NCBI RefSeq assembly: GCF_007752535.1
Contig: NZ_CP036426.1
Coordinates: 6,758,001-6,822,000 of the forward strand
From: Tautonia plasticadhaerens
GTDB lineage: Bacteria > Planctomycetota > Planctomycetia > Isosphaerales > Isosphaeraceae
Length of the DNA stretch: 64,000 bases
Direction: 5' to 3'
Below are positions 3,403-29,244 of this stretch, in pieces; positions within the stretch are counted from its first letter, which is position 1, and each line of letters opens with the position of its first letter. Under the pieces are notes generated by a model, which worked only from the letters and a program-made list of their open reading frames with translations, was not told where the DNA came from and ran no database searches. Both the position numbers and the translations under genes were made by a program.

Positions 3403-3489
3403 TTCGGTCCCAGCACGGGGGACATCGGTCCCCAATCCCCCTCATTCGTCGTGCCTGTTGAACGAGAGCCCCCCGTCGCAAGTAGGCCC

Positions 3490-8081: not shown

Positions 8082-8092
8082 CAGAGTAACCT

Positions 8093-10711: not shown

Positions 10712-12755
10712 CGCCGACGACAGGGCGATCGGCCCCGACCTGGACGACCTGCTTACCCGGCACTTCCCGGGCAAGGTCGTCCGCAAGGACCTGACCAAGC
10801 TGGTCAAGGAGGGGGCCAACGTCCCCGTCTACGTCCTGGAGTACCTGCTCGGGTCGTATTGCGCCTCCAGCGACGAGGCGGTGATCGAGGACGGGCTCAG
10901 GACGGTCAAGCGGGTCCTGTCCGAGAACTACGTCCGGCCCGACGAGGCCGAGAAGGTCAAGTCGCTGATCCGGGAGCGGGGCAGCCTGAAGGTCATCGAC
11001 AAGGTGACCGTGGCGCTCAACGAGCGTCGGGACGTGTACGAGGCCCTGCTGAGCAACCTGGGCGTCAAGGGGATCGAGGTCGGCAGCGGCTACGTCAAGC
11101 AGTTCGAGAAGCTGCTGGTCGGCGGAATCTGGTGCATCGCCACGCTGGAGTACTTCTACGAGGAGGACCAGAAGGGCTCGCCGTTCCTGCTGCGTGACCT
11201 GAAGCCGATCCAGATGCCGAACATGGACATGGAGGAGTTGTTCGAGGCAAGGCGGGCCTTCACCGAGGGCCAGTGGATCGACGCGCTGCTCCGGTCGACC
11301 GGGATGGAGCCGGCGAACTTCGACGAGCGGGTGAAGTGGCACCTGCTGGCCCGGATGGTCCCGCTGATCGAGAACAACTACAACCTCTGCGAACTCGGCC
11401 CCCGGGGCACGGGCAAGAGCCACATCTACAAGGAGATCAGCCCGAACAGCATCCTGGTCTCCGGCGGGCAGACGACGGTGGCGAACCTGTTCTACAACAT
11501 GGCCCGGCGCTCGGTGGGGCTGGTCGGCCTGTGGGACGTGGTGGCCTTCGACGAGGTGGCGGGCATCTCGTTCAAGGACAAGGACGGCGTGCAGATCATG
11601 AAGGACTACATGGCGTCGGGCTCCTTCGCCCGGGGCCGGGACTCGATCAACGCCTACGCCTCGATGGTCTTCGTCGGCAACGTCAACCAGCCGGTGGACA
11701 CGCTGGTCAAGACCAGCCACCTGTTCGCCCCGTTCCCCGAGGCGATGATCGACTCGGCGTTCTTCGACCGCTTCCACGCCTACGTGCCGGGCTGGGAAAT
11801 CCCCAAGATGCGGCCCGAGTTCTTCACGGACCGCTACGGGCTGATCGTCGACTACCTGGCCGAGTTCCTGCGGGAGATGCGGAAGCGGAACTTCGGCGAT
11901 GCGATCAGCCGGCACTTCCGGCTGGGCCGGGACCTGAACCAGCGGGACACGATCGCCGTCCGGCACACCGCCTCGGGCCTCCTGAAGCTGCTCTACCCGC
12001 ACGAGGAGTACGACAAGGAGGCGGTCCGGCGCTGCCTGGAATACGCCCTGGAGGCCCGGAGGCGGGTCAAGGAGCAACTCAAGAAGATCGGCGGCATGGA
12101 GTTCTACGATGTCCACTTCAGCTACACCGACCAGGAGACGCTGGAGGAGCGGTTCATCGGCGTCCCCGAGCAGGGCGGCGGCTCGCTGATCCCCGACGGC
12201 CCGCTGAGCCCCGGGGTCATGCACACGGTCGCCACGGGGAGCGCCGGCCACCTGGGTCTGTACCGGATCGAGACGCAGGTGACGGCGGGGGGCGGGTCGC
12301 TGAAGACCTCGGGGCTGGGCTCCAGCACGGGGGCGAAGGAGGCGATCAAGGTCGGCTTCGACTACTTCAGGGCGAACGCCGGGCGGATCAGCGCCTCGAT
12401 CAAGGCGGGTGATCACGACTACCACCTGCACGTCGTCGAGTTGCACAACACCGGGGCGACGACGGCGATGACGCTGGCGGCCTTCGTCGCCCTCTGCTCC
12501 GGGGTGCTGGGCAGGCCGCTCCAGCCGCAGATGGTCGTCCTGGGCAGCATGAGCCTCGGTGGCAGCATCGTGCCGGTCGAGAACCTCGCCGAGTCGTTGC
12601 AGGTGGCCTTCGACGCCGGTGCAAAGCGGGTGCTGCTGCCGATGGCCAGCGTGCGGGACATCCCGACGATCCCCGGCGAGCTATTCGCCAAGTTCCAGAC
12701 CGGCTTCTACTCGGACCCGTCCGATGCGGTCTTCAAGGCGTTGGGCGTGCAGTGA
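10701..12755 (+). CDS. brxL: Lon-related BREX protein BrxL
   Basis: BrxL is the last conserved gene of type 1 BREX: an AAA+ protein fused to a Lon-protease-like C-terminal domain that forms DNA-binding multimers. The protein is 684 residues. Walker A (GPRGTGKS) is at 233-240 and the Walker B DE pair is at 284-285. The Lon-like C-terminus begins near residue 500 and ends with the conserved run GSMSLGGSIVPVENL followed by LPMASVRDIPTIP and FYSDPSDAVFKALGV. The gene overlaps pglZ by 11 bp, consistent with coupled translation. No further BREX gene follows. The intergenic DNA after it carries an independent promoter for the next small gene. Confidence 0.95.
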   Translation: MTSDADDRAIGPDLDDLLTRHFPGKVVRKDLTKLVKEGANVPVYVLEYLLGSYCASSDEAVIEDGLRTVKRVLSENYVRPDEAEKVKSLIRERGSLKVIDKVTVALNERRDVYEALLSNLGVKGIEVGSGYVKQFEKLLVGGIWCIATLEYFYEEDQKGSPFLLRDLKPIQMPNMDMEELFEARRAFTEGQWIDALLRSTGMEPANFDERVKWHLLARMVPLIENNYNLCELGPRGTGKSHIYKEISPNSILVSGGQTTVANLFYNMARRSVGLVGLWDVVAFDEVAGISFKDKDGVQIMKDYMASGSFARGRDSINAYASMVFVGNVNQPVDTLVKTSHLFAPFPEAMIDSAFFDRFHAYVPGWEIPKMRPEFFTDRYGLIVDYLAEFLREMRKRNFGDAISRHFRLGRDLNQRDTIAVRHTASGLLKLLYPHEEYDKEAVRRCLEYALEARRRVKEQLKKIGGMEFYDVHFSYTDQETLEERFIGVPEQGGGSLIPDGPLSPGVMHTVATGSAGHLGLYRIETQVTAGGGSLKTSGLGSSTGAKEAIKVGFDYFRANAGRISASIKAGDHDYHLHVVELHNTGATTAMTLAAFVALCSGVLGRPLQPQMVVLGSMSLGGSIVPVENLAESLQVAFDAGAKRVLLPMASVRDIPTIPGELFAKFQTGFYSDPSDAVFKALGVQ

Positions 12756-13611: not shown

Positions 13612-15018
13612 ATGAGCAAGAAGAAGTCCGAGTCCTACCGACGGATCGGAGCGATGATTGGATCGCCTGGCGATGCTACTGAGGAGCGTCAAGCAATCAC
13701 TGATACCATACTCAAGTGGAATGCGGCCAACAAAGCCCAAGGGTTATGGGTCGAACCGGTGAAGTGGGAAACGCATTCTACACCCGGCTTAGATGGCCGT
13801 CCCCAGGGAATGATCAATGAAGAACTGATCCCTCAGTCCGACTGTCTCATTGCAATCTTTCGGGCGAGAGCGGGAAGTCCGACCGGCAAGGAACTCTCTG
13901 GTACCATCGAAGAAATACGTGAGTTCATGAGAGTCGGAAAGTACGTCGTGGTGTACTTTTTCGAAGGCATGGTTCCAATCAAAGGAATTGACCCGGACCA
14001 GATTAAGCTGATCCATCAGTTCAAGGAGGAGATTCAGCAGAAGGGCTTGACGGAGAGTTATTCCACGGTCGACGAGTTACAAGCCAAGTTGTCGGTCCAG
14101 TTAAGTGGGATTGTCAAAAAGTTGACATCGAGGCCGGCGTCGTCTCGCAAATCCGGTTCGAGTCGGAAAGCCGCACCGACTTCCCAACTATCCATAGCCA
14201 ACAAGGGCAAGGGGCCGAATAAGACCAAACACTCCAAGGCGCCTAGCTCCTCCACAAGAACGAAAGTGGATTCTTCGGATCGCTGGGCGCTCCTCGGCGA
14301 TAGTTTCTTGGAGGCGAAAACGGTCCGGCAGAACCGTGATGGGACGATAACGGCCGAGGTTCCCTCTCAATCCGCCGAAGTGGATGCGGCAATGGCTTCG
14401 CTTCGCCCTCACCATTATGGAAGGAGCAAGCCCGTTCCCTTCGCACATGGGAATGACGCATGGATTGTTACCGTTCGAGAAGTCGAATCCGTTTCCGAAG
14501 GTGGTGAGCAACTCTGGACAGTCGTTCTTGCTCCCGAGCCGGTCGAATATGGCGGCGGGTCCATGGAGATGAGTGTACAAACACAAGGCAAATTATACAC
14601 GGCAGATGAAATTGCTCGGATGAGGGCCGGGAGAATCCTACTCAATGACCCTCCTCCCTTGGATGACAATAAGAGACCTTCGGGCGATATTGCTATGCTC
14701 GAAGAGGCATTTTTGGAGGCGCAGATACGGGGGGTTAGCACCCCCGTCACGGTCAATGACTGCATTATCCAGGTTATCTACAATGAGCAGAGAGGAAAAG
14801 GAGTAAACTTTCTGAAGCTCGCTCGTTTGGGAGCCATCTTCATGCTGAAGGCAGGGGGGGTGATCGAACACGTCAGAAAGCTGACGCTAGGTCCTGTCAG
14901 GAATGGGAAGGTCCATGTCGAGTTTGTCGGTGTAAGACGAAAGAAGTATGTCAATGCCGATCCAACAATCATCCAGCTTGAGGGAGACTGCGCTCTAGAA
15001 CAGGGTTCAAAAGATTGA
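13612..15018 (+). CDS. DUF4062-type N-terminal domain protein, candidate defence effector
   Basis: A 468-residue protein in two parts. Residues about 8-165 resemble the DUF4062 domain seen at the N-terminus of many signalling and NTPase proteins: IGSPGDATEERQAI, WETHSTPG, then a strand SDCLIAIFRARAGSPTG followed by an acidic helix GTIEEIREF and the strand YVVVYFF. A Lys/Ser-rich linker (about 170-225) connects to a C-terminal part of unknown family that contains two small beta-rich segments and a helix near 365-425. GC is low for the window (30 of 60 at 14641-14700), so it was probably acquired separately. It sits alone behind the BREX locus with 65 bp upstream and no obvious partner; the next gene begins beyond its stop. 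An anti-phage role is inferred only from domain type and location. Confidence 0.65.
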   Translation: MSKKKSESYRRIGAMIGSPGDATEERQAITDTILKWNAANKAQGLWVEPVKWETHSTPGLDGRPQGMINEELIPQSDCLIAIFRARAGSPTGKELSGTIEEIREFMRVGKYVVVYFFEGMVPIKGIDPDQIKLIHQFKEEIQQKGLTESYSTVDELQAKLSVQLSGIVKKLTSRPASSRKSGSSRKAAPTSQLSIANKGKGPNKTKHSKAPSSSTRTKVDSSDRWALLGDSFLEAKTVRQNRDGTITAEVPSQSAEVDAAMASLRPHHYGRSKPVPFAHGNDAWIVTVREVESVSEGGEQLWTVVLAPEPVEYGGGSMEMSVQTQGKLYTADEIARMRAGRILLNDPPPLDDNKRPSGDIAMLEEAFLEAQIRGVSTPVTVNDCIIQVIYNEQRGKGVNFLKLARLGAIFMLKAGGVIEHVRKLTLGPVRNGKVHVEFVGVRRKKYVNADPTIIQLEGDCALEQGSKD

Positions 15019-17975: not shown

Positions 17976-18043
17976 TCCCGGCGGCAATTGCCTGAGTTGC
18001 AGCTTCGGCCCCCAGGAACCCCCTCGTACGATCGGAGGGATGC

Positions 18044-18826
18044 ATGGCCAGGAAGAAGGTCGAGAAACGGGTCACCAAGTCGGACTTCCTCCGCAAGGCC
18101 CTGGACAAGAACCCCGACCTCGACCTCGGGCAGATCAACCGCCGCTGGGCGAAGGCCGGTCACCCGGGCGAGATCAGCAGCGCCCTCTACTACAAGGTCC
18201 GGCGCGATCTCGACATCCGGACCGAGTGGACCTGGGCACCGAAGGAGGAGAAGCCGGCCGGGACGAAGTCCCCGCAGGTGACGGGCACCGTCTACCAACT
18301 CAAGGTCACGCTCCGGGACATCCGCCCGCCGGTCTGGCGGCGGCTCCAGGTCCCCGACTGCTCGCTGGCGAAGCTCCACGAGGCCATCCAGGTCGCCATG
18401 GGCTGGGCGAACTACCACCTCTACTCCTTCGAGGTCGGCGACGAGAGCTACACCGACCCGAGGGGCGCCGCCGAACTCGACATGGAGGACGCCGGCCGGG
18501 TGAGGCTCAGCGACATCATCCCCAGGGAGAAGGCCAGGTTTGGCTACACCTACGACTTCGGCGACAACTGGGACCACGAGGTCCTGGTCGAGAAGGTCCT
18601 GCCGCCGGGGGAGGGCCTGGCGTACCCGGCCTGCGTGGACGGCAAGCGGGCCTGCCCTCCGGAGGACGTGGGCGGGCCGTGGGGCTACGCCGAGTTTTTC
18701 GACGCGATCCGGGACCCGGGGCACGAGCAGCACGAGGAACTGCTGGAGTGGGCCGGCGGGGAGTTCGACCCTGAGGCGTTCGACCTCGAAGGCATCAACA
18801 AACAACTGCGGCGGCTGAAGTGCTGA
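18044..18826 (+). CDS. plasmid pRiA4b ORF-3 family protein
   Basis: A 260-residue protein. Residues about 85-255 match the PRiA4_ORF3 family: [19 protein letters not shown], then [19 protein letters not shown], then [18 protein letters not shown] and [18 protein letters not shown]. The family was named after an Agrobacterium plasmid gene, is frequent in planctomycetes, and has no known activity; conserved Trp, Asp and Cys residues suggest a binding site. The N-terminal 80 residues form a basic helical segment. The ATG at 18044 follows a good ribosome-binding site (GGAGG). The stop lies 12 bp before the ATG of the next gene, suggesting an operon. Confidence 0.88.
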
Positions 18827-18837
18827 GGGAACCGACC

Positions 18838-19425
18838 ATGAGCGAGCACCAGTCCCGCTGGGTCGAGGTCGAGGGCGGTCGGGTCCATTACCTCGTCGGC
18901 GGCCCCGAGGGCGGTCGCCCGGTCGTCCTGCTGCACGGGGCCAGCTTCTCCTCGGCGACCTGGGCCGAGATCGGCACCCTCGATACGCTGGCCGGGGCCG
19001 GATACCGGGCCAACGCCGTGGACCTGCCCGGCTACGGCAAGTCGTCGCCGAGCCTGGGCACGTACCGGACCTGGCTGCGTGTCCTGCTGGACCTGCTGAA
19101 GGTCGAGAAGCCCGTGGTCGTCTCGCCGTCGATGAGCGGGCGGTTCGCCCTGCCGCTGGTGACGGAAGACCCGGAGCGGGTCGCCGGCTTTGTGGCGGTC
19201 GCCCCGGTGGGCATCACGCAGCACCAGGAGATGCTGGATCGGATCACGGCCCCGGTGCTGGCGATCTGGGGCGAGCACGACACGACCGTCCCGCAGGAGC
19301 ATGCCGACCTGCTGGTCAACTCGGTGAAAAGGGGCCGCAAGGTCGTCATCCCCGGCGGCCTTCTACGCCGAATACATGTTGGTCAGGCGACGTGGAGGGA
19401 ATCTGGCGTCAACGCCGCCATGTGA
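18838..19425 (+). pseudogene. alpha/beta hydrolase with C-terminal deletion and frameshift
   Basis: The reading is 195 residues and begins at ATG 18838 behind GAGGG. The fold is clear: oxyanion segment [12 protein letters not shown] near residue 32, nucleophile elbow SPSMSG with Ser98, and the acid strand LAIWGEHD with Asp148. After VVIPGG (residue 174) the frame changes: the bases that follow encode AFYAEYML in a different frame, which is the helix normally found after the catalytic His. A deletion has therefore removed the His-containing loop and shifted the frame, so the enzyme lacks one member of its triad. The final 18 residues are out-of-frame sequence and overlap the convergent gene by 43 bp. 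It could still encode a folded but inactive protein; pseudogene is the better label. Confidence 0.65.
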
Positions 19426-20066
19426 CGGCGTGCCGACTCCCGGAGGTGGTGAAACATGGGGTCTCGGGCAACCACGGACCACGCCGACAGGCACGCCTCC
19501 ACGTCCGGCATGAAGTAGGCAAGCCCCTCGGCATGCCCGTCCTCGGTCCAGACAAAGGTGGGAGGCTCACCGGGGCGAGTCCAACGGATGCGGTCCTCGG
19601 TGCGGTCGATGACCCAGAGGGCGCCACCTCCCGGCAGGGTGATCGCATCGCTGACCGGGTTGACCTCGTTGACGTAGCGGCGGTAGTGGCGTGCGGCGAG
19701 GTCCACGACCTCGACGCGATGTCCGACTTGGCGGGCCAGCCAGGCGTGATATTCGCCCCGATCGAACCCGCCGTTGCTGGCGTCCATCCGGATCAGCCCG
19801 GCGCCGGCGGGGTTGGAGGGGTCGGCGACGATCGTCAGCGTTCCGGCCTGGATCATGTAACCGGCGTCCCCCAGGAGGGCGTACCCGGCGACGGCGTAGG
19901 CGAGGCACTTGCCGAAGCCGTCGGTCCCGGTGACCTCGCAGACGGCCCGATGGGCGGCCTCGGCGATCTGTGCTTGGTCTGCGGGATAAGGGATCGGGCT
20001 GAGGGATGGGATGTTCTTCGTGTGGGGACGCTTCCGGGCGTCCTTCTGAGCGCGGCGGCTCGACAT
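19383..20066 (-). CDS. hypothetical protein with a papain/transglutaminase-like Cys-His-Asp arrangement
   Basis: A 227-residue protein starting at ATG 20066, which has GGAG 9 bases upstream; the alternative ATG at 20102 has none. Cys54 heads a hydrophobic helix ([17 protein letters not shown]), His107 sits in GEYHAWLAR and Asp122 in [11 protein letters not shown]. This order and spacing matches transglutaminase-like and papain-like cysteine enzymes, including lasso-peptide leader proteases, but overall similarity to any named family is not apparent. The first 35 residues are basic and likely flexible. It converges with the damaged hydrolase. A long non-coding stretch lies upstream, so it probably has its own promoter. 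Activity is inference. Confidence 0.6.
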
Positions 20067-21169
20067 CGCTGTGACTCCGCAGTTGATGAATGTCAGTGGC
20101 ACCGGACCATCGTGGCCGGCTCGGTCGTTATGGGGGAAAGGAGTTCGAACCGAGGCGCCTTGTGAACGCGCAGAATCCCCTCGCCCCGGGATGGGCTCCG
20201 GTGAACGGCGCTCCGGGGCGGTACCCGGATCATTTCGAAATGACGGGAGGTCGATGAGTAATCCTCATCGACCTCGACGACGACCTCCATCCGCACCTCC
20301 ACCGGCTCCCCTCCCGGCCCGGTGGAGCCGGGTCGGCGGCCCCAGGGGTGGCTAGAATCCTCACGGTGCCGAAAGGCCGAGGAGATCGCAGGGAGGTGGT
20401 GCGGGATGCGGGTCGCCATCGGGTGGGACGCCTCAAGTCGGGTTCGTCTCATCGACGGAGCGAACTCCGGCGCCGTGCCCGGGGCGCTTGCCCCCGTCCT
20501 GGCCCCGGAGAAAACATCCTCTTCCTCACCTTCTCCCGGTGGCACTTGGCCTGTCAGGCAAGACCCATGGCGGCGAGGTCGAACTCCGGGCAGAGCCGGT
20601 CGGAGGGTCGCCCGGCCTACCCCACTTCGGCGGCACCGGGACCCCTGGAGGCCGGGGCGCCCGGAGGCAGCGAGCCCGGATACCCGTAGCTTGATAACGT
20701 GTACGACCGAGGGGACCCAACTTTCGTCGGTGCTAATACCAGGGAGGAGTTCTCGATTTTGCAACTCCTGCTGGGTTATCAAGACGGCCCGGTCGTCTGT
20801 TCCGCCCATCCCGGCCTGAGCCTCCTAGCCCTAATTGATTAGTGAAGAATTGTTCCATTCCGAATATTGCGGCAAGGATTCCGCCGGGATGGCGGCCTGG
20901 AGGAAAGGATTCCTGGCAGCGGGTACACAAAGTTACTACAACGAGACGAGCGTCCTTATCAACTGGTGATGCGGGGAACCCTTAAGTAGCGAACGACCCT
21001 CTGGGTTATGAACCACACCTGCCCCCCGAAGTAGCCAAAGCCCAGGGTCGACCGCCGGCCCCTCCGCTCGCATCCACACCGGTTATTAACCCAGCGGGAC
21101 GTACCCTCGTACCGGGCCGACCTCCAAGGCGAGGACATCAGCGAGTAGCCGGGCCAGTCGGCATTCCGC
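20067..21169. other. 1.1 kb without a credible gene
   Basis: Reading frames here have the Arg/Pro/Gly-rich composition of random high-GC DNA, no ribosome-binding sites and no family resemblance. The one notable structure is the perfect inverted repeat at 20247-20275. The stretch around 20,820-20,960 is unusually AT-rich for the window. It may be a junction between insertions or a decayed gene. Confidence 0.5.
20247..20275. repeat. perfect 12-bp inverted repeat
   Basis: GAGGTCGATGAG (20247-20258) and its exact reverse complement (20264-20275) flank a 5-nt loop, TAATC. There is no T-run on either side, so it is not a typical intrinsic terminator. It lies about 180 bp upstream of the 19383-20066 gene on the - strand and could be an operator or RNA hairpin. 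Confidence 0.5.
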
Positions 21170-21598
21170 TCACACCCGACTGATGCCTTTGCTTGAGTAC
21201 GCCTGCGACCTCCAGATCACCTCGATCCCCGCGCCCAGGCCGACACCGACGACATAGCAGGCCAGGTCGGACCAGAGGAAGCCGTGGCCCAGGGCGAGCC
21301 CGCCGAGGGTCGTCCGGCGGATCGTGTCGAGCCAGGGGGCGTGGTACAACTGGCCGACCTCGACCAGGAGCGAGACGAGCAGCGTCAGGGCGGCGACATG
21401 CCTCGTCGAGGCCCGGGGCAGGAGCAGGCCGATCCACAGGAACGCCGCCGTCGCCCAGAAGGTGTCCCCGGCGTAGGCCACCACGAAGTCCGGAAAATGG
21501 GCAGCGAAGCGCCGGGAGCCGATCCCAAGCACCACTGTCAGGCCGAGCAGGGCGAGACGGATCAGGATAGTTCGCCGATTTCGGGGAGCGGAGTTCAT
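21170..21598 (-). CDS. DUF2809 family membrane protein
   Basis: A 142-residue integral membrane protein with four predicted helices (about 10-28, 40-60, 66-84, 105-130). The family signature is visible: LGIGSRRF, YAGDTFWATAAFLWIGLLLP, VEVGQLYHAPWLDTIR and LGHGFLWSDLACYVVG. DUF2809 proteins have no known biochemical role; the conserved acidic and aromatic residues face the membrane. The start overlaps the stop of the upstream metallo-hydrolase by 4 bp (ATGA on the - strand), so the two are translationally coupled. Confidence 0.85.
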   Translation of the reverse strand: MNSAPRNRRTILIRLALLGLTVVLGIGSRRFAAHFPDFVVAYAGDTFWATAAFLWIGLLLPRASTRHVAALTLLVSLLVEVGQLYHAPWLDTIRRTTLGGLALGHGFLWSDLACYVVGVGLGAGIEVIWRSQAYSSKGISRV

Positions 21599-22419
21599 GC
21601 CCCGTCACCTTCGGCCCCGATCATCCGCAGGTAGCGATCCGCCGAGCGCCGCACCGCCTCCTTTGCCCCCTCGGGGATCGCCAGGTCGAACATGAACCCG
21701 TAGATGCGGTCGAAGGCGTAGGGCTCGACGGCGGCGACGGCCCTCCGGACTGCCCCGGCCGGCAGCGGGATGTAGTTGGGGTACGAGTACATGAAGCTGA
21801 CGTGGCGGCGGTCCATGCAGACCTGGAGGATGTCGCCCGCCAGCAGCGTCCCTTTGCCATCGGCCCCGGCGGGCCAGTGCAGGACCGTGCCGCCCTCGAA
21901 GTGCCCTCCGCAACGGATGAGGGTAATCCCGTCGTGCAACTCCTTGGTCTCCCCGCCCCAGAACTCGATCACCGGGTCGGGCCGCATGACCCACCGCCGG
22001 TCGGCGGCATGCAGGTAGATGGGGACGCCGCCGAAGGCCCGGCTCCACTCGACCATCGACGAGTAATAATGCGGGTGCGAGACGGCGATGGCGGCAAGGC
22101 CGCCGAGGTCGTTGACCGCCTGGATCGTCGCCTCGTCGACCAGCGGGATGCAGTCCCAGAGGACGTTACCGCCGGGGGATTGGACCAGCAGCGCCCGCTG
22201 GCCGATGCCGAACTTCGGCTGGGTGCCGATGCCCGTCAGGCCCGGCTCCTCGGGGCGAATCCGGTTGGTGTGGTCGGCCCGGAGTTGGTCGAGGGTCATC
22301 CATCGCTGGCCGTCCCAGCCGAGATACTGGCGCTCGTCCTCGCAGATGGGGCAGCGTTCGGGCTGCTCAGGGGACTCGGCATATTGGGTCCCGCAGGTCG
22401 TACAGATGAAGTGGGGCAT
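21595..22419 (-). CDS. MBL-fold metallo-hydrolase with N-terminal rubredoxin-like zinc site
   Basis: A 274-residue protein. The first 26 residues carry two CxxC pairs (Cys6/Cys9, Cys23/Cys26), a rubredoxin-like knuckle. The rest follows the metallo-beta-lactamase fold: AIAVSHPHYYSSMVEW, a downstream CGGHFEGGTVLHWPA, and GTLLAGDILQVC. The metal-binding HxHxDH motif is reduced to HPH followed by YYSS, so one metal site is altered compared with typical hydrolases. The ATG at 22419 (MPHFICTTCG) is preferred over an upstream ATG at 22461 because it begins at the domain. It is the first gene of a two-gene operon with the DUF2809 protein. Confidence 0.85.
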   Translation of the reverse strand: MPHFICTTCGTQYAESPEQPERCPICEDERQYLGWDGQRWMTLDQLRADHTNRIRPEEPGLTGIGTQPKFGIGQRALLVQSPGGNVLWDCIPLVDEATIQAVNDLGGLAAIAVSHPHYYSSMVEWSRAFGGVPIYLHAADRRWVMRPDPVIEFWGGETKELHDGITLIRCGGHFEGGTVLHWPAGADGKGTLLAGDILQVCMDRRHVSFMYSYPNYIPLPAGAVRRAVAAVEPYAFDRIYGFMFDLAIPEGAKEAVRRSADRYLRMIGAEGDGA

Positions 22420-22579
22420 GGGGCGAGGGCTCCGGGACACGATCCTGACCGGCGGGTCCATCGTCGAACGGGTCAGCGGGGCAAGTCAATCAGGGGCCGA
22501 CGAACCCGCTGAATCGGGGAACAATCGAGTCAGCCTCCCCGTAGAAGTGGTGTAGAAAGAGACACCACGGGAGGGACGC

Positions 22580-22825
22580 ATGACGACGACCAAGATGACC
22601 GACACGGCCCTCTGGCAGCGGAACCTGGCCTCCTTGATCCGCTCGGGCCTGTTCGTGCGGGCGGAAGTCGCCGAGTACCGGGGCCTGTACGCCGTCGTCG
22701 GGCTCTACTCCGACGGCTCCCATTCGGCCCCGCTGGCGAAGTATGCCGACCGTCGCCGGGCCGACGACGCCCTGGCGCTGGTCCATCGCATGGCCGACCC
22801 CGGCATCCCCGCCGAGGTCAACTGA
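22580..22825 (+). CDS. small hypothetical protein
   Basis: An 81-residue protein behind a clear ribosome-binding site (GGGAGG, 5 bases before ATG 22580). It has a helical N-terminus (WQRNLASLIRSGLFVRAEVA), a short beta hairpin (GLYAVVGLYSDGS) and a helical C-terminus. No domain is recognised. It is divergent from the metallo-hydrolase operon and 212 bp upstream of the OsmC-like gene. Confidence 0.55.
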   Translation: MTTTKMTDTALWQRNLASLIRSGLFVRAEVAEYRGLYAVVGLYSDGSHSAPLAKYADRRRADDALALVHRMADPGIPAEVN

Positions 22826-23037
22826 TCCGCCGGCAATCAACGAACTCCGACTCGCCCGCCCCGGTCATCCTGGTCCGGGGGCGGGCGTTCTTCGTTGCGC
22901 AGGGCCCTCGGGGCGATCGGCCTGCTTCTTGCTCGAAGGCTGCTCGATCATCATCCCCTCGGCGGCATCCACCGGGGGAGCGATCCCGAGGTGACGATCC
23001 TGGTCCCCCGGCCTCGACCACGAAGGGAGCGAGCACC

Positions 23038-23511
23038 ATGGGCGTGGTCCACACGAGCAAGCTGCGGGTCGAGAAGCACGAGGGGCCGCACCGCACCGCC
23101 CACCTGGAGGGCTTCGGCGAGCCGATCCCCTTCGGCATCCACGGCGGCATCAAGCACTTCTACGGCCGGAAGTACGGCCGGGAGATCACGGGGCCGGAGT
23201 ATCCCGCCACGCTGGACTACATCATCGCCGGGGTCGCCGGGTGACTGCTCGGCACCCTTGGGTCCGCACTGGACGTGCGGCAAGTGCCCTCGGCCGAGAA
23301 CCTGACGGCGGAAGTGGAGGGGGACATCGAGGACGTGAACGGCGTCCTGAAGATCACCGAGATTCGGCTTCGTTACCGGATCAAGGCCCCGGCGGGCAAG
23401 CGGGAGGCGATCGAGCGGCTGCTGGGGCAGTACGCCGAGGCGTGCCCGGCGTACCAGAGCGTCAAGGGATGCATCGACTGCTCCTGGACCGCCGAGATCG
23501 AGGAGGTCTGA
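23038..23511 (+). CDS. OsmC-family redox protein, probable selenoprotein (in-frame UGA = Sec69)
   Basis: Two segments in one reading frame, 23038-23241 and 23245-23511, are separated only by a TGA at 23242-23244. Together they make a 157-residue OsmC-like protein: GEPIPFGIHGGIKHFYG, then ATLDYIIAGVAG-[UGA]-LLGTLGSAL, then EVEGDIEDVNGVLKITEIRL and EACPAYQSVKGC. In OsmC/Ohr proteins the redox cysteine follows exactly such an AxxGxG helix start, so the UGA replaces that Cys; the second conserved Cys is present at 136. A SECIS-like hairpin begins 7 bases after the UGA. Sec-containing OsmC-like proteins are known from metagenomic surveys. The ATG at 23038 has AGGGAG upstream. The alternative is a nonsense mutation, but both halves show conserved, undamaged sequence. 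Confidence 0.72.
23251..23288 (+). promoter_or_regulatory. candidate bacterial SECIS element
   Basis: An outer stem GGCAC (23251-23255) pairs with GTGCC (23284-23288) and an inner 6-bp stem CCGCAC (23264-23269) pairs with GTGCGG (23275-23280). The apical loop is TGGAC. The loop begins 25 nt after the UGA and has G at its second position, both within the usual range for bacterial SECIS elements. The internal loop is asymmetric (8 and 3 nt). Confidence 0.55.
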
Positions 23512-24044
23512 GGGCATTGCTCCTTGGCAGCACCCGGGCTGCCACTACCTGCATGCCCCATCGTTCGGGAGGCGTGACGACCGACTGACCTCGGTTAGGA
23601 ATCGGGCATCAGCGGTGCGGATGGATGGGTTGCGGAACTCCACGGCGAGGGGGCGTTGGGTTCCAAGCTCCCGGTGCAGGATTCCCTCGCCGAGGTGCCT
23701 TCGAGGCCGAGGTCCGATGGGGAGCCATCTTCCCCGACAGGGCCGGCATCCTTCGGTAAATCCCAGACTTGACAGGGACTTCCGGGGCGGATTATCTATT
23801 TCGTAGACATCGGACGTTCGGACTTCGACGTGGCCCAAGCAGCCGCATGTGAGCGTCGAGAGGATATCGACGGCTGCCGGTATCCCCCGCCTCGGCGGGA
23901 ACGCTCGGACCAGCGAGACCCGTCAAGCCCGTATAGCCGCCCGTGAACGTCCCCGTCGCCTCCGCTTGCTCCCAGGGCCAAGACGGCTATCTCGGGTCCG
24001 GACAAGCCCAGGACCCGCATCCGTTCCGGGTGCGGAGGTGGGGC
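23512..24044. other. 533 bp without a credible gene
   Basis: No frame here has coding character. A possible weak promoter lies at 23769-23797 (TTGACA, 17 bp, TTATCT) on the + strand, about 250 bp before the helix-turn-helix gene. The rest is featureless by eye. Confidence 0.4.
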
Positions 24045-24659
24045 TTGCTTGGCATGTCCGGATCGAATTCTCCCGAGGTCCCGTCACGTCATCCTCGTTC
24101 GGATCGGTCTCCGGGCGCGTGGTCCGTTCTCTCCGAGCGCCACGACCATGAGGCACGGCGTCTCCTCGTTCGCTACCCCGAGTTGGCGCACATCGGGGCC
24201 GAGATCAAGGAGATGGGCCTCGATGCGGAGGTGGCCGTCGATCTCGCCCTTGCCTCCGTTGCCCGGTTCCTCGGGGATCGTTCCGGCCCGGTCCCGGAGC
24301 CCGAGGAAGGGACGCTGAAATCCATCGCCGAGTCGGTCGCCCGGATCGAGGACCGGCTTGCCTCGGGCCTGGAACGGCCCCTCGGAGATGCGATTGCACC
24401 GCTGGTCGAGCGGCTCTCGAAGATCGAGGGCGACCTCACGGCCCTGACCCAGCAACGAGCCGCCAAGGACTCCTACAGCACCGAGGAGGTTGCCAGGATC
24501 GTCGGGAGAAGCGACTACACCGTCAGGGAGTGGTGCCGATACGGTCGCCTCCGGGCCGTGAAGCGGAAATGCGGCCGGGGGCGGTCGGCGGAATGGTCGA
24601 TCCCCCACGAGGAATTGATGCGATACCGGAACGAGGGCCTCCTGCCCCTGCCCCGGTAA
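24045..24659 (+). CDS. helix-turn-helix DNA-binding protein, excisionase-like
   Basis: About 204 residues. The C-terminal 60 residues form a MerR/excisionase-type winged helix: YSTEEVARIVGRSDYTVREW, a Lys/Arg-rich wing and a closing IPHEELMRYRNEG. The middle (about 65-135) is a coiled-coil-like helical region (LKSIAESVARIEDRL, LVERLSKIEGDLTALTQQ). A TTG at 24045 with GGAGG six bases upstream is the best start; the ATG at 24054 lacks a ribosome-binding site. It converges on the tyrosine recombinase gene with a 65-bp gap, so it may be the recombination directionality factor or a regulator of the same island. Confidence 0.65.
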   Translation: MLGMSGSNSPEVPSRHPRSDRSPGAWSVLSERHDHEARRLLVRYPELAHIGAEIKEMGLDAEVAVDLALASVARFLGDRSGPVPEPEEGTLKSIAESVARIEDRLASGLERPLGDAIAPLVERLSKIEGDLTALTQQRAAKDSYSTEEVARIVGRSDYTVREWCRYGRLRAVKRKCGRGRSAEWSIPHEELMRYRNEGLLPLPR

Positions 24660-24724
24660 TCGGCCGTCGGGAGGACCTCCACGCGAATCGGCGGCCCCGT
24701 CGGGCCGGGCCGACCCGCCTCGGA

Positions 24725-25960
24725 TCAGGGCAGCAGCGTCAGGATCGCGCTCCGGAGCGTCGTCGGGAACATGTGGCGATATCGCCTCCGCATCTCCTCG
24801 GTCTGGTGCCCGACGAAAGAGTCGATCACCCGCTGATCGACCCCGTGGGACGCCAGGATGCTGATGAAACTGTGCCTGAACACATGCCAGCCCCGGATCG
24901 CCCGCCAGCGGCTCCCACGCAGGACGGATTCCAGGCGACCGTCCATCACATCCACGTCGATCGGCCCGCCGTCCGGCCGGCAGAGGGTGGACCGCCCGCC
25001 GGGATGCACCCGGAACCATTGGTGCATTGCCTCTGCCAGCCGTGGGTGGAGGTCGACGTGGCGGAAGGTGATCGACTTCCGCTTGTCCCGCTTCTTCTCC
25101 CGGACCTTGACCCGCTCGGCCTGGAAGTCGAAATCGTCCCGCTCCGACCGGATGATCTCCGATCGCCTCGCGCCGGTCAGGGCGGCGAACGCGACGGCGG
25201 GATAGACCCAGGGTTCGGCATCCTGGCGTCGTACGTGGTCCAGGACGGCGAGCAATTCCGTATCCGTCAGGAAGACCCGGGACCAGAGCGGGCGTGCCTC
25301 GTCCTCGGACAGGCCATCCCGCTCGATCCGGGCGGCGATGTCCGCATACGGCAACCACTCCCCGGCGTCCTCCTCCTTCGGCATGTCCACGTCGCCGGGC
25401 TTCCACGCCGGGGGCGTCGAGACGGCCCCCAGCTTGACCGCCCACCGCCAGACGTGGCAGAGCGTCTTGAGTTCCTTGCCGACTGTATAGGGCTTGGGCG
25501 CCTTCCCGTTCCTCGTCTCGGACAGCCGCTTCTTCGCGTACAGCCGGGCGGCGGGCAGGTCGATGGCGTCGAGGGACTTCTCCCCGCCCAAGACCCGCTC
25601 GACGTTGCGGAGGTAGGATCGCTCGACCTTGAGCGTCCCGGCCTCCTTGTTGGCGGGCGGGCTGGCCAGGTAGTCCTCGACGAGCCTCCCGAGGGTCGGT
25701 GCGGCGGGGGGAGGGGCTGCGATCCTGGGCTTGGCGGTCAACTTGCCATCGGACAGGACGAACGCGCCGACATCCGCCCCGTCGGGGATCGAGATGCGGC
25801 CCCGCTGCAACAGGGCCAGGGTCTCCTCGATCCGCCCGAGGAGGGCGGTGGCCTCCCGCTCATCCCGGGTCTTCAGGCTGCGGTTGAACCGGCGACCGCC
25901 GTAGCGGAATTCGACCCGGAAGAATCCCGACCCATCCCGGTCCAGGTAGATCGACGCCAA
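24725..25960 (-). CDS. tyrosine recombinase (site-specific integrase)
   Basis: A 411-residue integrase. The N-terminus is an arm-type domain with a beta strand pattern (YLDRDGSGFFRVEFRYGGRRF), residues about 90-190 form the SAM-like core-binding domain, and the catalytic domain contains the first Arg (ALTGARRSEI), HxxR (HVFRHSF), the second His (VGHQT) and the nucleophile Tyr (MRRRYRHMF). All catalytic residues are present. The gene begins 134 bp from the 3' end of tRNA-Arg and is transcribed away from it, the usual arrangement for an element integrated at a tRNA 3' end. The element would extend to the left, towards the BREX locus. Confidence 0.92.
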   Translation of the reverse strand: MASIYLDRDGSGFFRVEFRYGGRRFNRSLKTRDEREATALLGRIEETLALLQRGRISIPDGADVGAFVLSDGKLTAKPRIAAPPPAAPTLGRLVEDYLASPPANKEAGTLKVERSYLRNVERVLGGEKSLDAIDLPAARLYAKKRLSETRNGKAPKPYTVGKELKTLCHVWRWAVKLGAVSTPPAWKPGDVDMPKEEDAGEWLPYADIAARIERDGLSEDEARPLWSRVFLTDTELLAVLDHVRRQDAEPWVYPAVAFAALTGARRSEIIRSERDDFDFQAERVKVREKKRDKRKSITFRHVDLHPRLAEAMHQWFRVHPGGRSTLCRPDGGPIDVDVMDGRLESVLRGSRWRAIRGWHVFRHSFISILASHGVDQRVIDSFVGHQTEEMRRRYRHMFPTTLRSAILTLLP

Positions 25961-26031
25961 CGTCGTCCCCTCCCATGCGACTGCCCTGCAACGTCCCTAT
26001 TGTCGCAGAAAGATCGCAGGTGGAAAGGGAC

Positions 26032-26064
26032 AGGGCCCCGACCTCCGAAGAGTGTCGGGGCCCT
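26032..26064. terminator. strong hairpin between integrase and tRNA-Arg
   Basis: An 11-bp perfect stem (AGGGCCCCGAC at 26032-26042 with GTCGGGGCCCT at 26054-26064) encloses an 11-nt loop. TTCTTCT follows nearby on the + strand. It lies just downstream of the tRNA on the - strand and probably ends tRNA transcription before the integrase gene. Confidence 0.6.
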
Positions 26065-26094
26065 TAGTTCTTCTGATTCCTGGAGTTAGGTCAG

Positions 26095-26168
26095 TATGCC
26101 CGGCAGGATTTGAACCTGCAACCTTTAGCTCCGGAGGCTAACGCTCTATCCAATTGAGCTACGGGCAC
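26095..26168 (-). tRNA. tRNA-Arg (anticodon CCG)
   Basis: Read on the - strand, a 74-nt cloverleaf is complete: acceptor GTGCCCG/CGGGCAT (first pair G-U), D-stem GCTC/GAGC, anticodon stem TTAGC/GCTAA with loop CTCCGGA (anticodon CCG), T-stem GCAGG/CCTGC with loop TTCAAAT, and discriminator A. CCA is not encoded. The 3' end faces the integrase gene and is the likely attachment site. Confidence 0.95.
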
Positions 26169-26310
26169 CTCGAACTTGTTCTATTGTTCCGATCCGGGAC
26201 GCCGTGTCAAGGAGTTGCTCGGGAGGTCGGGCGCATTCGGTATCGGCCTGATCGGATGGGTAACGGGCCTGACGGCTCGGTCGGGATGGACGGCCTCGGC
26301 CGGGGGTGGG

Positions 26311-27591
26311 TCAGGGGTTTGAGGCGAGGTCGAGGAAGACGATGCAGGAAGGGTTGCCGACGGGGGCGTAGTGGCCGGAGAATTCCAGGAGCCCGGTCGG
26401 GCGATCGATGCGGAAGACGGCGACGGCGTCTCCCCGCTGGTTGCAGCTGTAGAGGAACCGGCCGGTGGGGTCGGTGGAGAGGCTGCGAGGGTAGTCTCCC
26501 CGCGTCCACTCCTCACCGAGGTGGGTAAGTTCGCCCGTGGGTCCGACGGAAAAGATGCCGATGCTGTCGTGCAGTCGGTTGCCGGCGTAGACGAATCGGC
26601 CGTCGCCGGAGACGAGGATGCCGGAGCAGAAGTTGCTGCCGGCGAACCCGGGGGGGAGGGAGGAGATGGTCTGACGGGAAGCGAGTCGGCCGGTCTCGGC
26701 GTCGTAGTCGAACAGGACGATCGTCGAGGCTTCTTCCTGGATGGAGTAGAGCCAGCGGCCCTCGGGGTGGAAGTCGAAGTGCCTCGGCCCATCGCCGGGG
26801 GGCAGGGAGGTCGCGTGCGGCTCGTTCGGGATCAGCACGCCCCGGCGGTCGTCGAACCTCCAGGCGAAGATCCGGTCCAGCCCCAGGTCGACGTGGAGCA
26901 CGAACGCCCCGGAGGGGTCGGGCCGGATCATGTGCGCGTGGGTCTGGTCGTGGCCGCTGAAGGCGAAGCTGCCCGACGGGGCGTTCGTCGCCCGAGTCGG
27001 CCCGACCTCCCCGGCGTCCTCCCGGACGTCCGTCGCCTCACCGAGGCGGCCGTCGTCCAGCACCGAGAAGACCGCGACCGAACCGCCGAAGTAGTTGGCC
27101 ACCAGGAGGAAGCGGCCGGAAGGGTGCAGGCTGACGTAGGTCGGGCCGGCGCCGCCGGAGGGGACCGTGTTCAGGGGCGTCAGGTGCCCGTCGACCGGGT
27201 CGATGGAGAAGGCGCTGACCGTGCCTTGACGGTCGTCTCCCACGCGGTCGGTCTCGTTGGCGGAATAGAGGCGGGAGCCGTCGGCGTTCAGCGCGAGGTG
27301 GCTGGGGCTGGTCCCCAGCTCGAACACGCCGTCGGGGGTCATCGCGCCGGTTTCGCGATCGACCCGGAAGATGTGGATGCCCCGGCCGTTGCCGGGGGGG
27401 AGGTCGACCTGGGTCGGCAGGACGTCCCGCAGGGGGGAGCTGAAGGTGCCGACGTAGGCCATCAGCGGCCCCTCGGCCTCGCCTTGCCCCTGGGCCCGGG
27501 CCGGCGAGGGACGGAGGCGAGAGGCCCCCGCCATCGCGAGGCCGGAGACCAGGAACGAGCGTCGGGAAGGCTTCGCGGGGAATTGGATCAT
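26311..27591 (-). CDS. lactonase-family (6-phosphogluconolactonase-like) beta-propeller protein, exported
   Basis: A 426-residue protein with a twin-arginine signal (PSRRSFLVSGLAMAG, cleavage after ARAQG near residue 36) followed by a seven-bladed propeller of the lactonase family (PF10282). Repeating blade motifs are visible: GTSPSHLALNADGSRLYSAN, PTYVSLHPSGRFLLVANYFGG, GPRHFDFHPEGRWLYSIQE and YPRSLSTDPTGRFLYSCNQ. The family includes YbhE/Pgl, but many planctomycete members are periplasmic and their substrates unknown. The ATG at 27591 begins the Tat signal. The neighbours are the tRNA upstream of its stop and a 450-bp gap before its start, so it is probably monocistronic. Confidence 0.88.
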   Translation of the reverse strand: MIQFPAKPSRRSFLVSGLAMAGASRLRPSPARAQGQGEAEGPLMAYVGTFSSPLRDVLPTQVDLPPGNGRGIHIFRVDRETGAMTPDGVFELGTSPSHLALNADGSRLYSANETDRVGDDRQGTVSAFSIDPVDGHLTPLNTVPSGGAGPTYVSLHPSGRFLLVANYFGGSVAVFSVLDDGRLGEATDVREDAGEVGPTRATNAPSGSFAFSGHDQTHAHMIRPDPSGAFVLHVDLGLDRIFAWRFDDRRGVLIPNEPHATSLPPGDGPRHFDFHPEGRWLYSIQEEASTIVLFDYDAETGRLASRQTISSLPPGFAGSNFCSGILVSGDGRFVYAGNRLHDSIGIFSVGPTGELTHLGEEWTRGDYPRSLSTDPTGRFLYSCNQRGDAVAVFRIDRPTGLLEFSGHYAPVGNPSCIVFLDLASNP

Positions 27592-28040
27592 CGGTTCGTC
27601 CTCGGACTCGCTCTCGGGGAATCCCCCGCCGCCTGCCCGGCCTCGACCGGCACGAACACACTCGATTCGGGTCGGCAGGCCGGGCGACCCGCCGGATGGC
27701 CCGGCCTCGAATTCATCGGGCCCGGGGGTCCTCCCCGTCGCCCTCCCGAGATCCCAACGGCTCCCGGTCCGCCGCCGGGGCCCTCGACGACGGTGGTCGG
27801 GGCGGGTCGCCCCGGTCCGAAGGCCGGTTGCAATTCGGATGGAAATCGGCCACCGCACCCTCGTCCCTGGATCGACTCCGGGGTCCGGGTCACCGTTCGG
27901 CCCGAATGGCCCGCGCCGGCGGACCTCTCCCCGCCCCGTCGTGCGTTGCGCGACGGGTTCGGATGAGGGTGGCCATCGTAGGGGGGTGCCGGGGTGCTCG
28001 CAAGCCTCCGGGGCGAGGGGAGGGACGCGGGGGACGGCCC
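27592..28040. other. 449 bp intergenic
   Basis: No convincing gene. Frames are Arg/Pro/Gly-rich without ribosome-binding sites. It should contain the promoter of the lactonase-family gene on the - strand and the 3' end of the mtfA transcript, but I see no clear -35/-10 pair or terminator. Confidence 0.4.
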
Positions 28041-28841
28041 TCAACGGGCCGCCGGCCTGGGTTCGGTGCCGAGGAACCGGTCGGGATCCTGCCGGTAGTA
28101 GCCCTTTAGCTCCTCGAAGAGTTCGGGGTGCTCGCGCCTCAGCCGGGCCGGACGCTCGAAGAAGCATTCCGTCGCCACGGCGAAGAACTCGGCGGGGTTG
28201 GTCGCGCCGTAGGCGTCCAGGACGCTGGGGACGCCTCTCCCGGCCTCTTGCCGGAGTCGATCGTACTCCGCGCCGAGGACCCGGGCCCAGGTGACATACC
28301 GGCTCCGCTGGCCGAGGATCGGGGCGCCGTTGGCCTCGCCGTCCTCCTGGTCGAGCTGATGGGCGAACTCGTGGAGCACGACGTTGTGGCCGTCGTGCAG
28401 GTCCAGGGCGCCGGCGAGCACGTCATCCCAGGCGAGCACGACGACTCCGTCCCGCCACGCCTCCCCGAGCCGGGACACCTCCCCCTCCAGCACCATCCCG
28501 CCGCCGATCGGTTGCCGGGCGTGGGCGACGTAGGCGCTCGGGTAGACCAGGATCGTCACCAGCCGGTGATACGCCTCGACCTCCCGGTGGAGCAGCAGCA
28601 CGCAGGCCTGGGCGGCGATCGTGACCCGGATCTCGTCTGTCGGCTCCAGGCCGGCACACCCCTCGAACCGCTTCTCGTCGAGGAAGACCCGGATGAGCCC
28701 GCGCAGCTCCCGGCGGTCCTCCTCGGGGAGCCTCGAATCGAGCGGGACGTTCTTGCGGAGGATCGCCTCCCAGGCCTCGGGAAAGGGCTCGGCTCGGAGC
28801 CGATCCCGTCGTCGGCTCCGGGACTCGAAGAGGCCGAACAT
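28041..28841 (-). CDS. mtfA: MtfA-type zinc peptidase
   Basis: A 266-residue member of the MtfA/DUF980 peptidase family. In E. coli, MtfA binds the glucose regulator Mlc and is an aminopeptidase. The zinc signature HEFAHQLD is at His157-Glu158-His161, followed by the downstream acidic ligand region NPAEFFAVATECFFERP. The N-terminus (MFGLFESRSRRRDRLR) and the helix ILRKNVPLDSRLPEEDRREL are typical. ATG 28841 has GGAGG at the right distance. The gene is in line with the small protein gene at 28957-29244, 116 bp apart. Confidence 0.92.
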   Translation of the reverse strand: MFGLFESRSRRRDRLRAEPFPEAWEAILRKNVPLDSRLPEEDRRELRGLIRVFLDEKRFEGCAGLEPTDEIRVTIAAQACVLLLHREVEAYHRLVTILVYPSAYVAHARQPIGGGMVLEGEVSRLGEAWRDGVVVLAWDDVLAGALDLHDGHNVVLHEFAHQLDQEDGEANGAPILGQRSRYVTWARVLGAEYDRLRQEAGRGVPSVLDAYGATNPAEFFAVATECFFERPARLRREHPELFEELKGYYRQDPDRFLGTEPRPAAR

Positions 28842-28956
28842 GGCGTTCCTCCGGTGGAAGGGCGGTCGGGCGGGCGGCGGGCCGGCCCGTCGCCTGGCCG
28901 ATTGTACTCCCATCGACCCCAACCCCGGAGTGGCCGACGGGGCAGGAGGCCCCGGT

Positions 28957-29244
28957 TCAGGCGGCCCCCCGATCCGCCTCCGGCTCGGCCGAGTAGGCGA
29001 GCAGCTCGAGCCTCCGGAACGCCTCGTGCGTCACCTCGAACGGCGAGCCGTTGATCTCCCAGAGCTGCTCGACCACCTCGTCGACGTCCCCCTCGGGTTC
29101 CTCCCAGGTGGCGACGAACCGGCCCCCTCCCCGGGGGGTCACCTCCAGGCCGAGGTCGACCAGGAGGCGTTCAATCTCGGCCGACTTGGCCGGGTCGGCG
29201 GTGAAGGTCCAGCGGATCATGTCGACGGTCCGGTCCTCGCTCAT
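28957..29244 (-). CDS. small hypothetical protein
   Basis: A 95-residue acidic protein with a strong ribosome-binding site (AGGAGGAG) before ATG 29244. The sequence suggests a compact alpha/beta domain: MIRWTFTADPAKSAEIERLL, a Gly-rich turn, GRFVATWEEPEGDVDEVVEQLW and a C-terminal helix. No family is recognised. It is upstream of mtfA on the same strand and may be co-transcribed with it. Confidence 0.65.
   Translation of the reverse strand: MSEDRTVDMIRWTFTADPAKSAEIERLLVDLGLEVTPRGGGRFVATWEEPEGDVDEVVEQLWEINGSPFEVTHEAFRRLELLAYSAEPEADRGAA

What the first reader, a model, noticed from the sequence alone, without database searches (positions are those of the whole stretch)
23038..23511. OsmC-family gene with an in-frame UGA at the redox cysteine and a SECIS-like hairpin
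The two halves are in the same frame and separated only by TGA at 23242-23244. Family knowledge places the peroxidatic Cys at this point (after the ATLDYIIAGVAG helix start), and the second family Cys is present at residue 136. Immediately downstream is a two-part stem-loop (23251-23288) with loop TGGAC starting 25 nt after the UGA. Seen: frame, UGA, hairpin. Known: Sec-containing OsmC-like proteins exist. Inferred: UGA is read as selenocysteine here.
Basis: partly seen in the sequence, partly recalled or inferred. Interest (0 to 1): 0.82.

Follow-up and report, generated by a model that had tools for sequence, protein, structure and literature searches.

The report
Selenocysteine OsmC-type peroxidase on genomic island
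A planctomycete bacterium carries a gene for an OsmC-type peroxide-detoxifying protein whose active-site amino acid is very probably selenocysteine, read from an internal UGA codon with the help of an RNA hairpin; such proteins are known as a class, but this branch is little described and the gene appears to lie on mobile DNA.

Summary
Window 23038-23511 is one OsmC-family (PF02566) gene with a single internal in-frame TGA at codon 69, aligned with the peroxidatic cysteine. The same genome has selA, selB, selD and tRNA-Sec(UCA); its selD and a SelW-like gene beside it also contain in-frame TGA. Of 38 related loci found (43-74% identity), 37 have TGA at this codon; the other has a frame-disrupting deletion there; none has Cys. 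selA is over its cut-off in 32 of 34 genomes of relatives tested. After the TGA lies a hairpin whose apical stem is conserved with compensatory changes in three of six pairs, each coupling an amino-acid-changing site with a synonymous one. Sec-containing OsmC-like proteins have been known since 2005, so this is a new member of a known kind; but the clade appears fixed on Sec and its scores stay far below the NCBIfam OsmC cut-offs. The gene lies inside a probable 90-kb tRNA-Arg island (integrase, 49-bp direct repeat, BREX genes) that also holds a decayed second copy. Decoding of the UGA and peroxidase activity are inferred. Calls: 2, 8, 20, 21, 32, 42, 62, 67, 72.

The parts
23038..23511 (+). 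OsmC-family selenoprotein gene, 157 aa when codon 69 (TGA) is read through; own stop codon 23509-23511
   Evidence: Reading frame; PF02566 47.6 bits against cut-off 27.5; 35 of 35 aligned members match PF02566 at E 0.01 or better; predicted fold matches solved OsmC/Ohr structures
23242..23244 (+). in-frame TGA, inferred selenocysteine codon (Sec69), at the peroxidatic Cys position of OsmC/Ohr
   Evidence: TGA in 37 of 38 related loci; aligned with a Cys of 4mh4, 1ukk and 1n2f in weak-scoring alignments
23264..23280 (+). apical SECIS-like hairpin: stem 23264-23269/23275-23280, loop TGGAC 23270-23274 with G in loop positions 2 and 3
   Evidence: covariation in 18 distinct sequences, 99.1% of cells paired, 3 of 6 pairs changed on both sides
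23443..23445 (+). codon of Cys136, the second (resolving) family cysteine, in the CP motif
   Evidence: same residue in 35 of 35 rows; aligned with CP of 4mh4, 1ukk, 1n2f
23470..23481 (+). CIDC (residues 145-148), a C-terminal CxxC seen in 11 of the 13 rows of the nearest clade and in none of the other 22 rows (two of those, L062 and L063, are cut off before the second position)
23943..24659 (+). excisionase-like / helix-turn-helix ORF beside the gene (context, mobile element)
   Evidence: TIGR01764 20.5 bits, below its cut-off of 28.8: weak
24725..25960 (-). tyrosine integrase of the probable island (context)
   Evidence: PF00589 63.7 bits against cut-off 27.1
26093..26141 (+). probable attachment repeat: 3' part of tRNA-Arg(CCG), repeated 47/49 at G000:C1:6693483-6693531, about 90.6 kb to the left (outside the window)

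Best explanation
The gene encodes an OsmC/Ohr-type thiol peroxidase in which the peroxidatic residue is selenocysteine (Sec69). During translation the UGA at codon 69 is decoded by Sec-tRNA(UCA) brought by SelB, which binds the small hairpin lying 20-36 nt downstream in the coding sequence. The selenolate of Sec69 attacks an organic hydroperoxide, perhaps activated by the invariant Arg19; the selenenic acid formed is resolved by Cys136, and a thiol reductant restores it. In the window's own clade a C-terminal CxxC (145/148) may pass electrons on. Shown by sequence: frame, TGA, fold family, conserved partner residues, covarying hairpin, complete Sec machinery. Inferred: UGA decoding, catalysis, substrate, roles of Arg19 and of the CxxC.
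For: Single internal TGA in an otherwise open OsmC frame. Sec machinery in the same genome: selA 513.2 bits (cut-off 267.9) beside selB 348.5 bits (cut-off 242.25); tRNA-Sec with anticodon tca; selD 351.8 bits (cut-off 125) with one in-frame TGA of its own; and a SelW-like ORF beside it reading CALU (TIGR02174 50 bits, cut-off 34.2). TGA in 37 of 38 relatives, whose titles name Planctomycetota, Deltaproteobacteria/Desulfobacteraceae, Acidobacteria and KSB1. selA over cut-off in 32 of 34 genomes of relatives. Hairpin: 99.1% of cells paired against 85.9% in shuffles, covariation score 0.405 against 0.160, 0 of 500 shuffles as high. Protein-level constraint on both sides of the TGA: pN below pS in 7 of 7 comparisons on each side. 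Residue 69 aligns with the active-site Cys of solved OsmC/Ohr proteins; best fold matches are OsmC/Ohr proteins (first rank E 2.8e-9, TM 0.72/0.80).
Against: No protein or translation evidence. The hairpin beats synonymous recodings at the 5% level in 25 of 38 sequences and 9 of the 13 of the nearest clade, so not in all; L029 has a mismatch in the stem and the scan found no hairpin there, L051, L054 and L057 have only a 4-bp stem, and L063 a 6-bp one that 20% of recodings equal. In one search one of the measures (further pair types, 4 against 5.1) is not above the shuffles, and the count of pairs changed on both sides is reached by 91 of 500. Rfam gave no match. Two genomes of relatives lack a selA over the cut-off: one has a fragment at a contig start, one (G455, a MAG) has none. 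Relative L065 has lost the TGA region by a frame-disrupting deletion. Sequence similarity to solved peroxidases is weak (best E 0.042), so enzyme activity rests on family and fold.
Confidence: 0.94

Rival explanations
1. A nonsense mutation or sequencing error has split an ordinary Cys-type OsmC gene, which is now a pseudogene.
For: A decayed copy of the same gene exists in this genome (L024), so loss happens; the gene sits in probable mobile DNA.
Against: TGA in 37 of 38 public loci (some of them near-identical to each other); constraint on the half after the TGA; hairpin covariation; Sec genes present.
Confidence: 0.02
2. The UGA is decoded by ordinary read-through, as Trp or another residue, without selenium, or UGA is reassigned in this organism.
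For: UGA followed by C is generally a leaky context (recalled, no call).
Against: The gene's own stop is TGA; selA, selB and tRNA-Sec(tca) are present; the residue aligns with the catalytic Cys, where Trp would be expected to abolish the chemistry; relatives lie in genomes with selA (32 of 34).
Confidence: 0.02
3. Two separate polypeptides are made, the second from an internal start after the UGA.
For: In-frame GTG codons lie at residues 80, 83, 93 and 100.
Against: The same script found no in-frame ATG or TTG after the TGA; the predicted helix 58-80 spans the TGA and would be cut; residues 69, 72 and 73 of the motif UxxGT are the same in 35 of 35 rows.
Confidence: 0.02

Closest known systems
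OsmC-like selenoprotein family (Sargasso Sea and GOS selenoproteomes, COG1765/PF02566; PMC1088965, PMC2398784; tables of PMC9312934 and PMC13188914)
   Same: OsmC domain with Sec at a redox Cys position and a predicted bacterial SECIS element (legend seen)
   Different: Those papers give the motif UxxT (passages seen); here it is UxxGT in 35 of 35 rows. Whether the Sargasso sequences belong to this clade was not tested.
NCBIfam NF041052 OsmC_like_Se, 'OsmC-related (seleno)protein'
   Same: Best-scoring NCBIfam model for the window protein (28.9 bits); L066, one of the two Planctomycetota matches over its cut-off, shows the same local pattern with Cys, CFIGT
   Different: Cut-off is 95 bits; among 35 clade members the best E-value to this model is 9e-7, that of the window itself (bits are shown for the window only)
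Ohr / OsmC organic hydroperoxide reductases (for example P. aeruginosa Ohr 1n2f, C. violaceum Ohr 6ebg, E. coli OsmC 1nye)
   Same: Predicted fold, catalytic position and second Cys in a CP motif
   Different: Sec for Cys; 10-20% identity in the 50 fold matches listed; the window protein is below the cut-offs of TIGR03561, TIGR03562 and TIGR03563

Membership tests
OsmC superfamily (PF02566) | Domain match over Pfam gathering score | tested here: met
   47.6 bits against 27.5 for the window; 35 of 35 members match at E 0.01 or better
OsmC superfamily (PF02566) | OsmC/Ohr fold | tested here: met
   Model pLDDT 89.7; the 50 PDB matches listed have probability 1.00 and nearly all are named OsmC, Ohr or organic hydroperoxide resistance protein, a few only hypothetical or putative
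OsmC superfamily (PF02566) | Two redox residues: peroxidatic Cys (here Sec69) and resolving Cys (136) | tested here: met
   Aligned with cysteines of 4mh4, 1ukk, 1n2f (E 0.042-0.083); both the same in 35 of 35 rows
OsmC superfamily (PF02566) | Hydroperoxide reductase activity | not testable with these tools
   needs an enzyme assay
Bacterial selenoprotein | In-frame UGA at a catalytic Cys position, conserved in relatives | tested here: met
   37 of 38 relatives
Bacterial selenoprotein | selA, selB, selC (tRNA-Sec), selD in the genome | tested here: met
Bacterial selenoprotein | SECIS hairpin directly downstream, small apical loop with a G | tested here: met
   small apical loop with a G as described in PMC1088965 (passage). 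No bacterial SECIS predictor was run.
Bacterial selenoprotein | Selenium in the protein | not testable with these tools
   needs 75Se labelling or mass spectrometry
NCBIfam NF041052 OsmC_like_Se | Score over the curated cut-off (95 bits) | tested here: not met
   28.9 bits; no E-value better than 9e-7 among 35 members
Published OsmC-like selenoprotein family, motif UxxT | UxxT at the Sec site | tested here: not met
   UxxGT in 35 of 35 rows: the Thr is one residue further on. A small difference, which by itself does not separate the families.

The most novel reading that the evidence does not exclude
This is a separate OsmC lineage that has become fixed on selenocysteine (no close Cys form found), moves between Planctomycetota, Desulfobacterota/Myxococcota and others on mobile elements into Sec-decoding hosts, and in its planctomycete-deltaproteobacterial branch has gained a C-terminal CxxC giving a Sec-Cys-CxxC relay; its coding sequence keeps three alternative SECIS hairpin registers in different clades.
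Probability: 0.4. Interest if true: 0.55.

Novelty: new member of a known kind. Interest (0 to 1): 0.42.

Why it matters
It adds a well-supported selenoprotein that standard annotation would be expected to cut at the UGA, in a clade that scores far below the NCBIfam OsmC cut-offs, so members may be annotated as broken or truncated genes (not checked). The clade also gives a natural series in which synonymous sites track amino-acid changes to keep a SECIS stem, and a case of a selenoprotein gene on a probable mobile island, whose use depends on the host having Sec machinery.

Tried and rejected
Rfam gave no match here (window 22951-23600, E up to 5: 0 matches), so the hairpin rests. The outer stem was first tested one column out of register, then correctly: not conserved either way. 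One search used a mistaken Rfam accession (alpha tmRNA); it bears on nothing. In one search the selD protein was given one base out of frame, so its empty row says nothing; selD rests and the in-frame reading. A search for conserved neighbours (ORFs of 80 codons or more, up to 3 kb each side of the relatives where held, window 18000-29000, blastp E 1e-8) found no match for any window ORF and none among the 12 nearest loci with each other; the same comparison does find shared neighbours within other clades, for example among the Bryobacterales loci, so it works. So no operon partner suggests a substrate. A profile search of 392 Planctomycetota genomes for Cys forms found the window, its decayed copy, one Sec relative (G364, the same locus as L033) and three remote OsmC proteins at 24-30 bits, which have Cys there. 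No close Cys form was seen; the genome-contig scan uses short peptide patterns and finds close relatives only. The tree mixes Planctomycetota and deltaproteobacterial records in the nearest clade, but with weak inner support, so transfer is suggested, not shown.

Selection to bear in mind: alignment A1 holds the window and 34 of the 38 relatives (left out: L041, L043, L044, near-copies of L042, and L065, broken). One search tested 34 of the 38 loci (left out L041, L043, L044, L054). The hairpin alignment A2 holds 19 of 38 sequences (the window and 37 relatives with TGA): the 13 of the nearest clade without choice, plus six others picked because one search showed the same register, which favours the structure for those six; two of the three covarying pairs (columns 23/39 and 27/35) also vary within the 13 alone (read by eye). 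Recodings used codon counts from two long ORFs per locus, for the window from the selA/selB locus. L030 and L023, and L033 and L025, are the same loci seen through two tools; L051 and L054 come from one isolate.

Full report
Observation. Read with TGA as an amino acid, window 23038-23511 (+) gives 157 residues with one internal TGA, at codon 69 (23242-23244), and the gene's own TGA stop. The protein matches Pfam OsmC (47.6 bits, cut-off 27.5). Local alignments with solved OsmC and Ohr proteins, weak in score (E 0.042-0.083), put residue 69 on a cysteine and Cys136 on the cysteine of the CP motif; that these are the peroxidatic and resolving cysteines is family knowledge (recalled). An AlphaFold2 model (pLDDT 89.7, pTM 0.80) has OsmC/Ohr proteins as its best solved matches (Thermoplasma 2onf E 2.8e-9; E. 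coli OsmC and C. violaceum OhrB among the 50 listed). Residue 69 lies in the predicted helix 58-80.

Machinery. The window lies in a 9.4-Mb genome of 6 contigs. That genome has selA (513.2 bits, cut-off 267.9) beside selB (348.5 bits, cut-off 242.25), a tRNA-Sec with anticodon tca (65.9 bits, cut-off 47; ARAGORN) and selD (351.8 bits, cut-off 125). In one search three further matches over the cut-off proved to be tRNA-Ser and tRNA-Leu. The selD frame itself contains one TGA, and just upstream on the same strand is a SelW-like ORF reading EYCALUGYEP (TIGR02174 50 bits, cut-off 34.2). So two other genes of this genome show the same use of UGA. In the family, 30 of 45 genomes have selA over the cut-off, but the OsmC gene was found in only 2 of 45, and in none of the three other genomes of the genus.

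Relatives. A scan of one genome per species (84,980 species by the tool's description) gave 38 related loci. In 37 of 38 the codon aligned with residue 69 is TGA; in the remaining one, L065, the match breaks there by a deletion that shifts the frame. None of the 38 has Cys there; the remote OsmC proteins L027 and L100-L102 have Cys. The query was searched as the Cys form, with patterns from six stretches that do not include residue 69, so the scan did not favour TGA; but it reaches close relatives only. In 35 aligned rows R19, residue 69 and C136 are the same throughout, and the local motif is U-[LM]-[TLM]-G-T in all 35. Of 34 genomes of relatives tested, 32 have selA over the cut-off, one a fragment at a contig start, one none. 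The proportion of amino-acid-changing differences is below that of synonymous ones on both sides of the TGA in 7 of 7 comparisons (7 of the 12 nearest loci were taken), so the part after the TGA is under constraint as protein.

Hairpin. The apical stem is six perfect pairs (23264-23269 with 23275-23280) with loop UGGAC; the loop begins 26 nt after the A of the UGA. Longer folds of the window put this stem in different outer structures depending on the length folded. Among 1000 recodings that keep the protein, 0.5% have an equally stable stem of this type. Over all 38 sequences, 25 are at 5% or below. Three clade-specific forms occur: the window's register (loop first base 26-27 nt after the UGA), a Bryobacterales form at 21 nt with an 8-bp stem, and a deltaproteobacterial form at 20 nt with a 7-8-bp stem. 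Exceptions are L029 (mismatch, none found), L051, L054, L057 (4 bp) and L063 (6 bp, 20% of recodings as good). In the shared register, 18 distinct sequences pair in 99.1% of cells; columns 23/39, 26/36 and 27/35 change on both sides, and in each pair one side is a synonymous third position that follows an amino-acid-changing position on the other (the codon reading is mine). Slid versions pair in 61.1% at most. Two of the five measures do not stand out: pairs changed on both sides (91 of 500 shuffles as high) and further pair types (499 of 500). The outer arm is not supported (47.8%, shuffles 47.7%).

What is known. The Sargasso Sea paper lists 3 OsmC-like selenoproteins with motif UxxT and a figure of predicted SECIS elements includes one (PMC1088965, passages). 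The GOS paper has a table row for the family with UxxT (PMC2398784, passage; column headings not seen), and reviews of 2022 and 2026 repeat the family with UxxT (PMC9312934, PMC13188914, passages). NCBIfam has a model, OsmC_like_Se, but the window protein scores 28.9 against 95, and no E-value among 35 clade members is better than 9e-7. Full sets of Sec-insertion genes in planctomycetes, I. pallida among them, were reported in PMC4807772 (passages). Two searches for OsmC-like with selenoprotein and OsmC with selenocysteine (5 and 10 papers) list no title about this clade; I saw passages of four of these papers. So the kind is known; the clade was not met as such in what I could search.

Context. 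The gene lies 1.2 kb from a tyrosine integrase (24725-25960, PF00589), and 134 bp beyond that is a tRNA-Arg(CCG) at 26094-26168. A 49-bp stretch with that tRNA's 3' part recurs at 47/49 identity, in the same orientation, at G000:C1:6693483-6693531, about 90.6 kb to the left, where ARAGORN finds no tRNA. Other tRNA-like matches of 74-86% lie elsewhere in the genome. This is what an integrated island looks like; G+C is 65.6% to the left of the repeat's right edge in the window and 71.3% to the right. The stretch holds BREX genes (brxC, pglX, pglZ, brxL) and, near its far end, a decayed copy of the same OsmC gene with its TGA and an internal deletion (G000:C1:6697291). Together with the absence of the gene in sibling genomes and the mixed tree this suggests arrival by horizontal transfer; the empty site was not checked.

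Mechanism. From the family (recalled): OsmC and Ohr reduce organic hydroperoxides by attack of the peroxidatic thiolate, disulphide formation with the second cysteine and reduction by lipoyl or other thiols, with a conserved Arg near the reactive thiol. Here Sec replaces the peroxidatic Cys, which should speed the first step and resist over-oxidation. The invariant Arg19 is a candidate for that Arg, but its place beside residue 69 was not measured. The CxxC at 145/148 (11 of 13 in the nearest clade, 0 of the other 22, two of which are cut short by the match) is a candidate for the reducing end; this is a guess.

Verdict. Sec incorporation at codon 69: 0.94. Peroxidase function: likely, by family. 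Novelty: new member of a known kind.

Noticed in passing
window 1-26141 and G000:C1:6693483-6693531: Probable 90.6-kb genomic island at tRNA-Arg(CCG): integrase beside the tRNA, 49-bp direct repeat of the tRNA 3' part (47/49) at the far end, lower G+C than the right flank.
   Followed up: partly
window 1-12755: BREX phage-defence genes: BrxC (1290 bits), PglX (1450), PglZ (989), BrxL (1130) on one strand, with a 329-aa ORF between pglX and pglZ that has no PADLOC match. brxC seems to begin before the window.
   Followed up: partly
L024 / G000:C1:6697291 (outside the window): Decayed second copy of the same OsmC gene, keeping the region around the TGA and the C-terminal end but lacking the middle; it lies inside the same probable island near its other end.
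   Followed up: partly
L018 (G000:C1:1191590-1195528): SelW-like gene (CxxU) directly upstream of a selD gene that itself carries an in-frame TGA; both are likely selenoproteins.
   Followed up: partly
L065 1084-1537: Uncultured Pirellulaceae relative whose OsmC gene has lost the region around the TGA by a frame-shifting deletion although its genome has selA: decay or assembly error.
   Followed up: partly
window 13612-15018: 468-aa ORF with a weak match (61 bits over residues 15-184) to the candidate defence family PDC-S60, downstream of the BREX genes.
   Followed up: no
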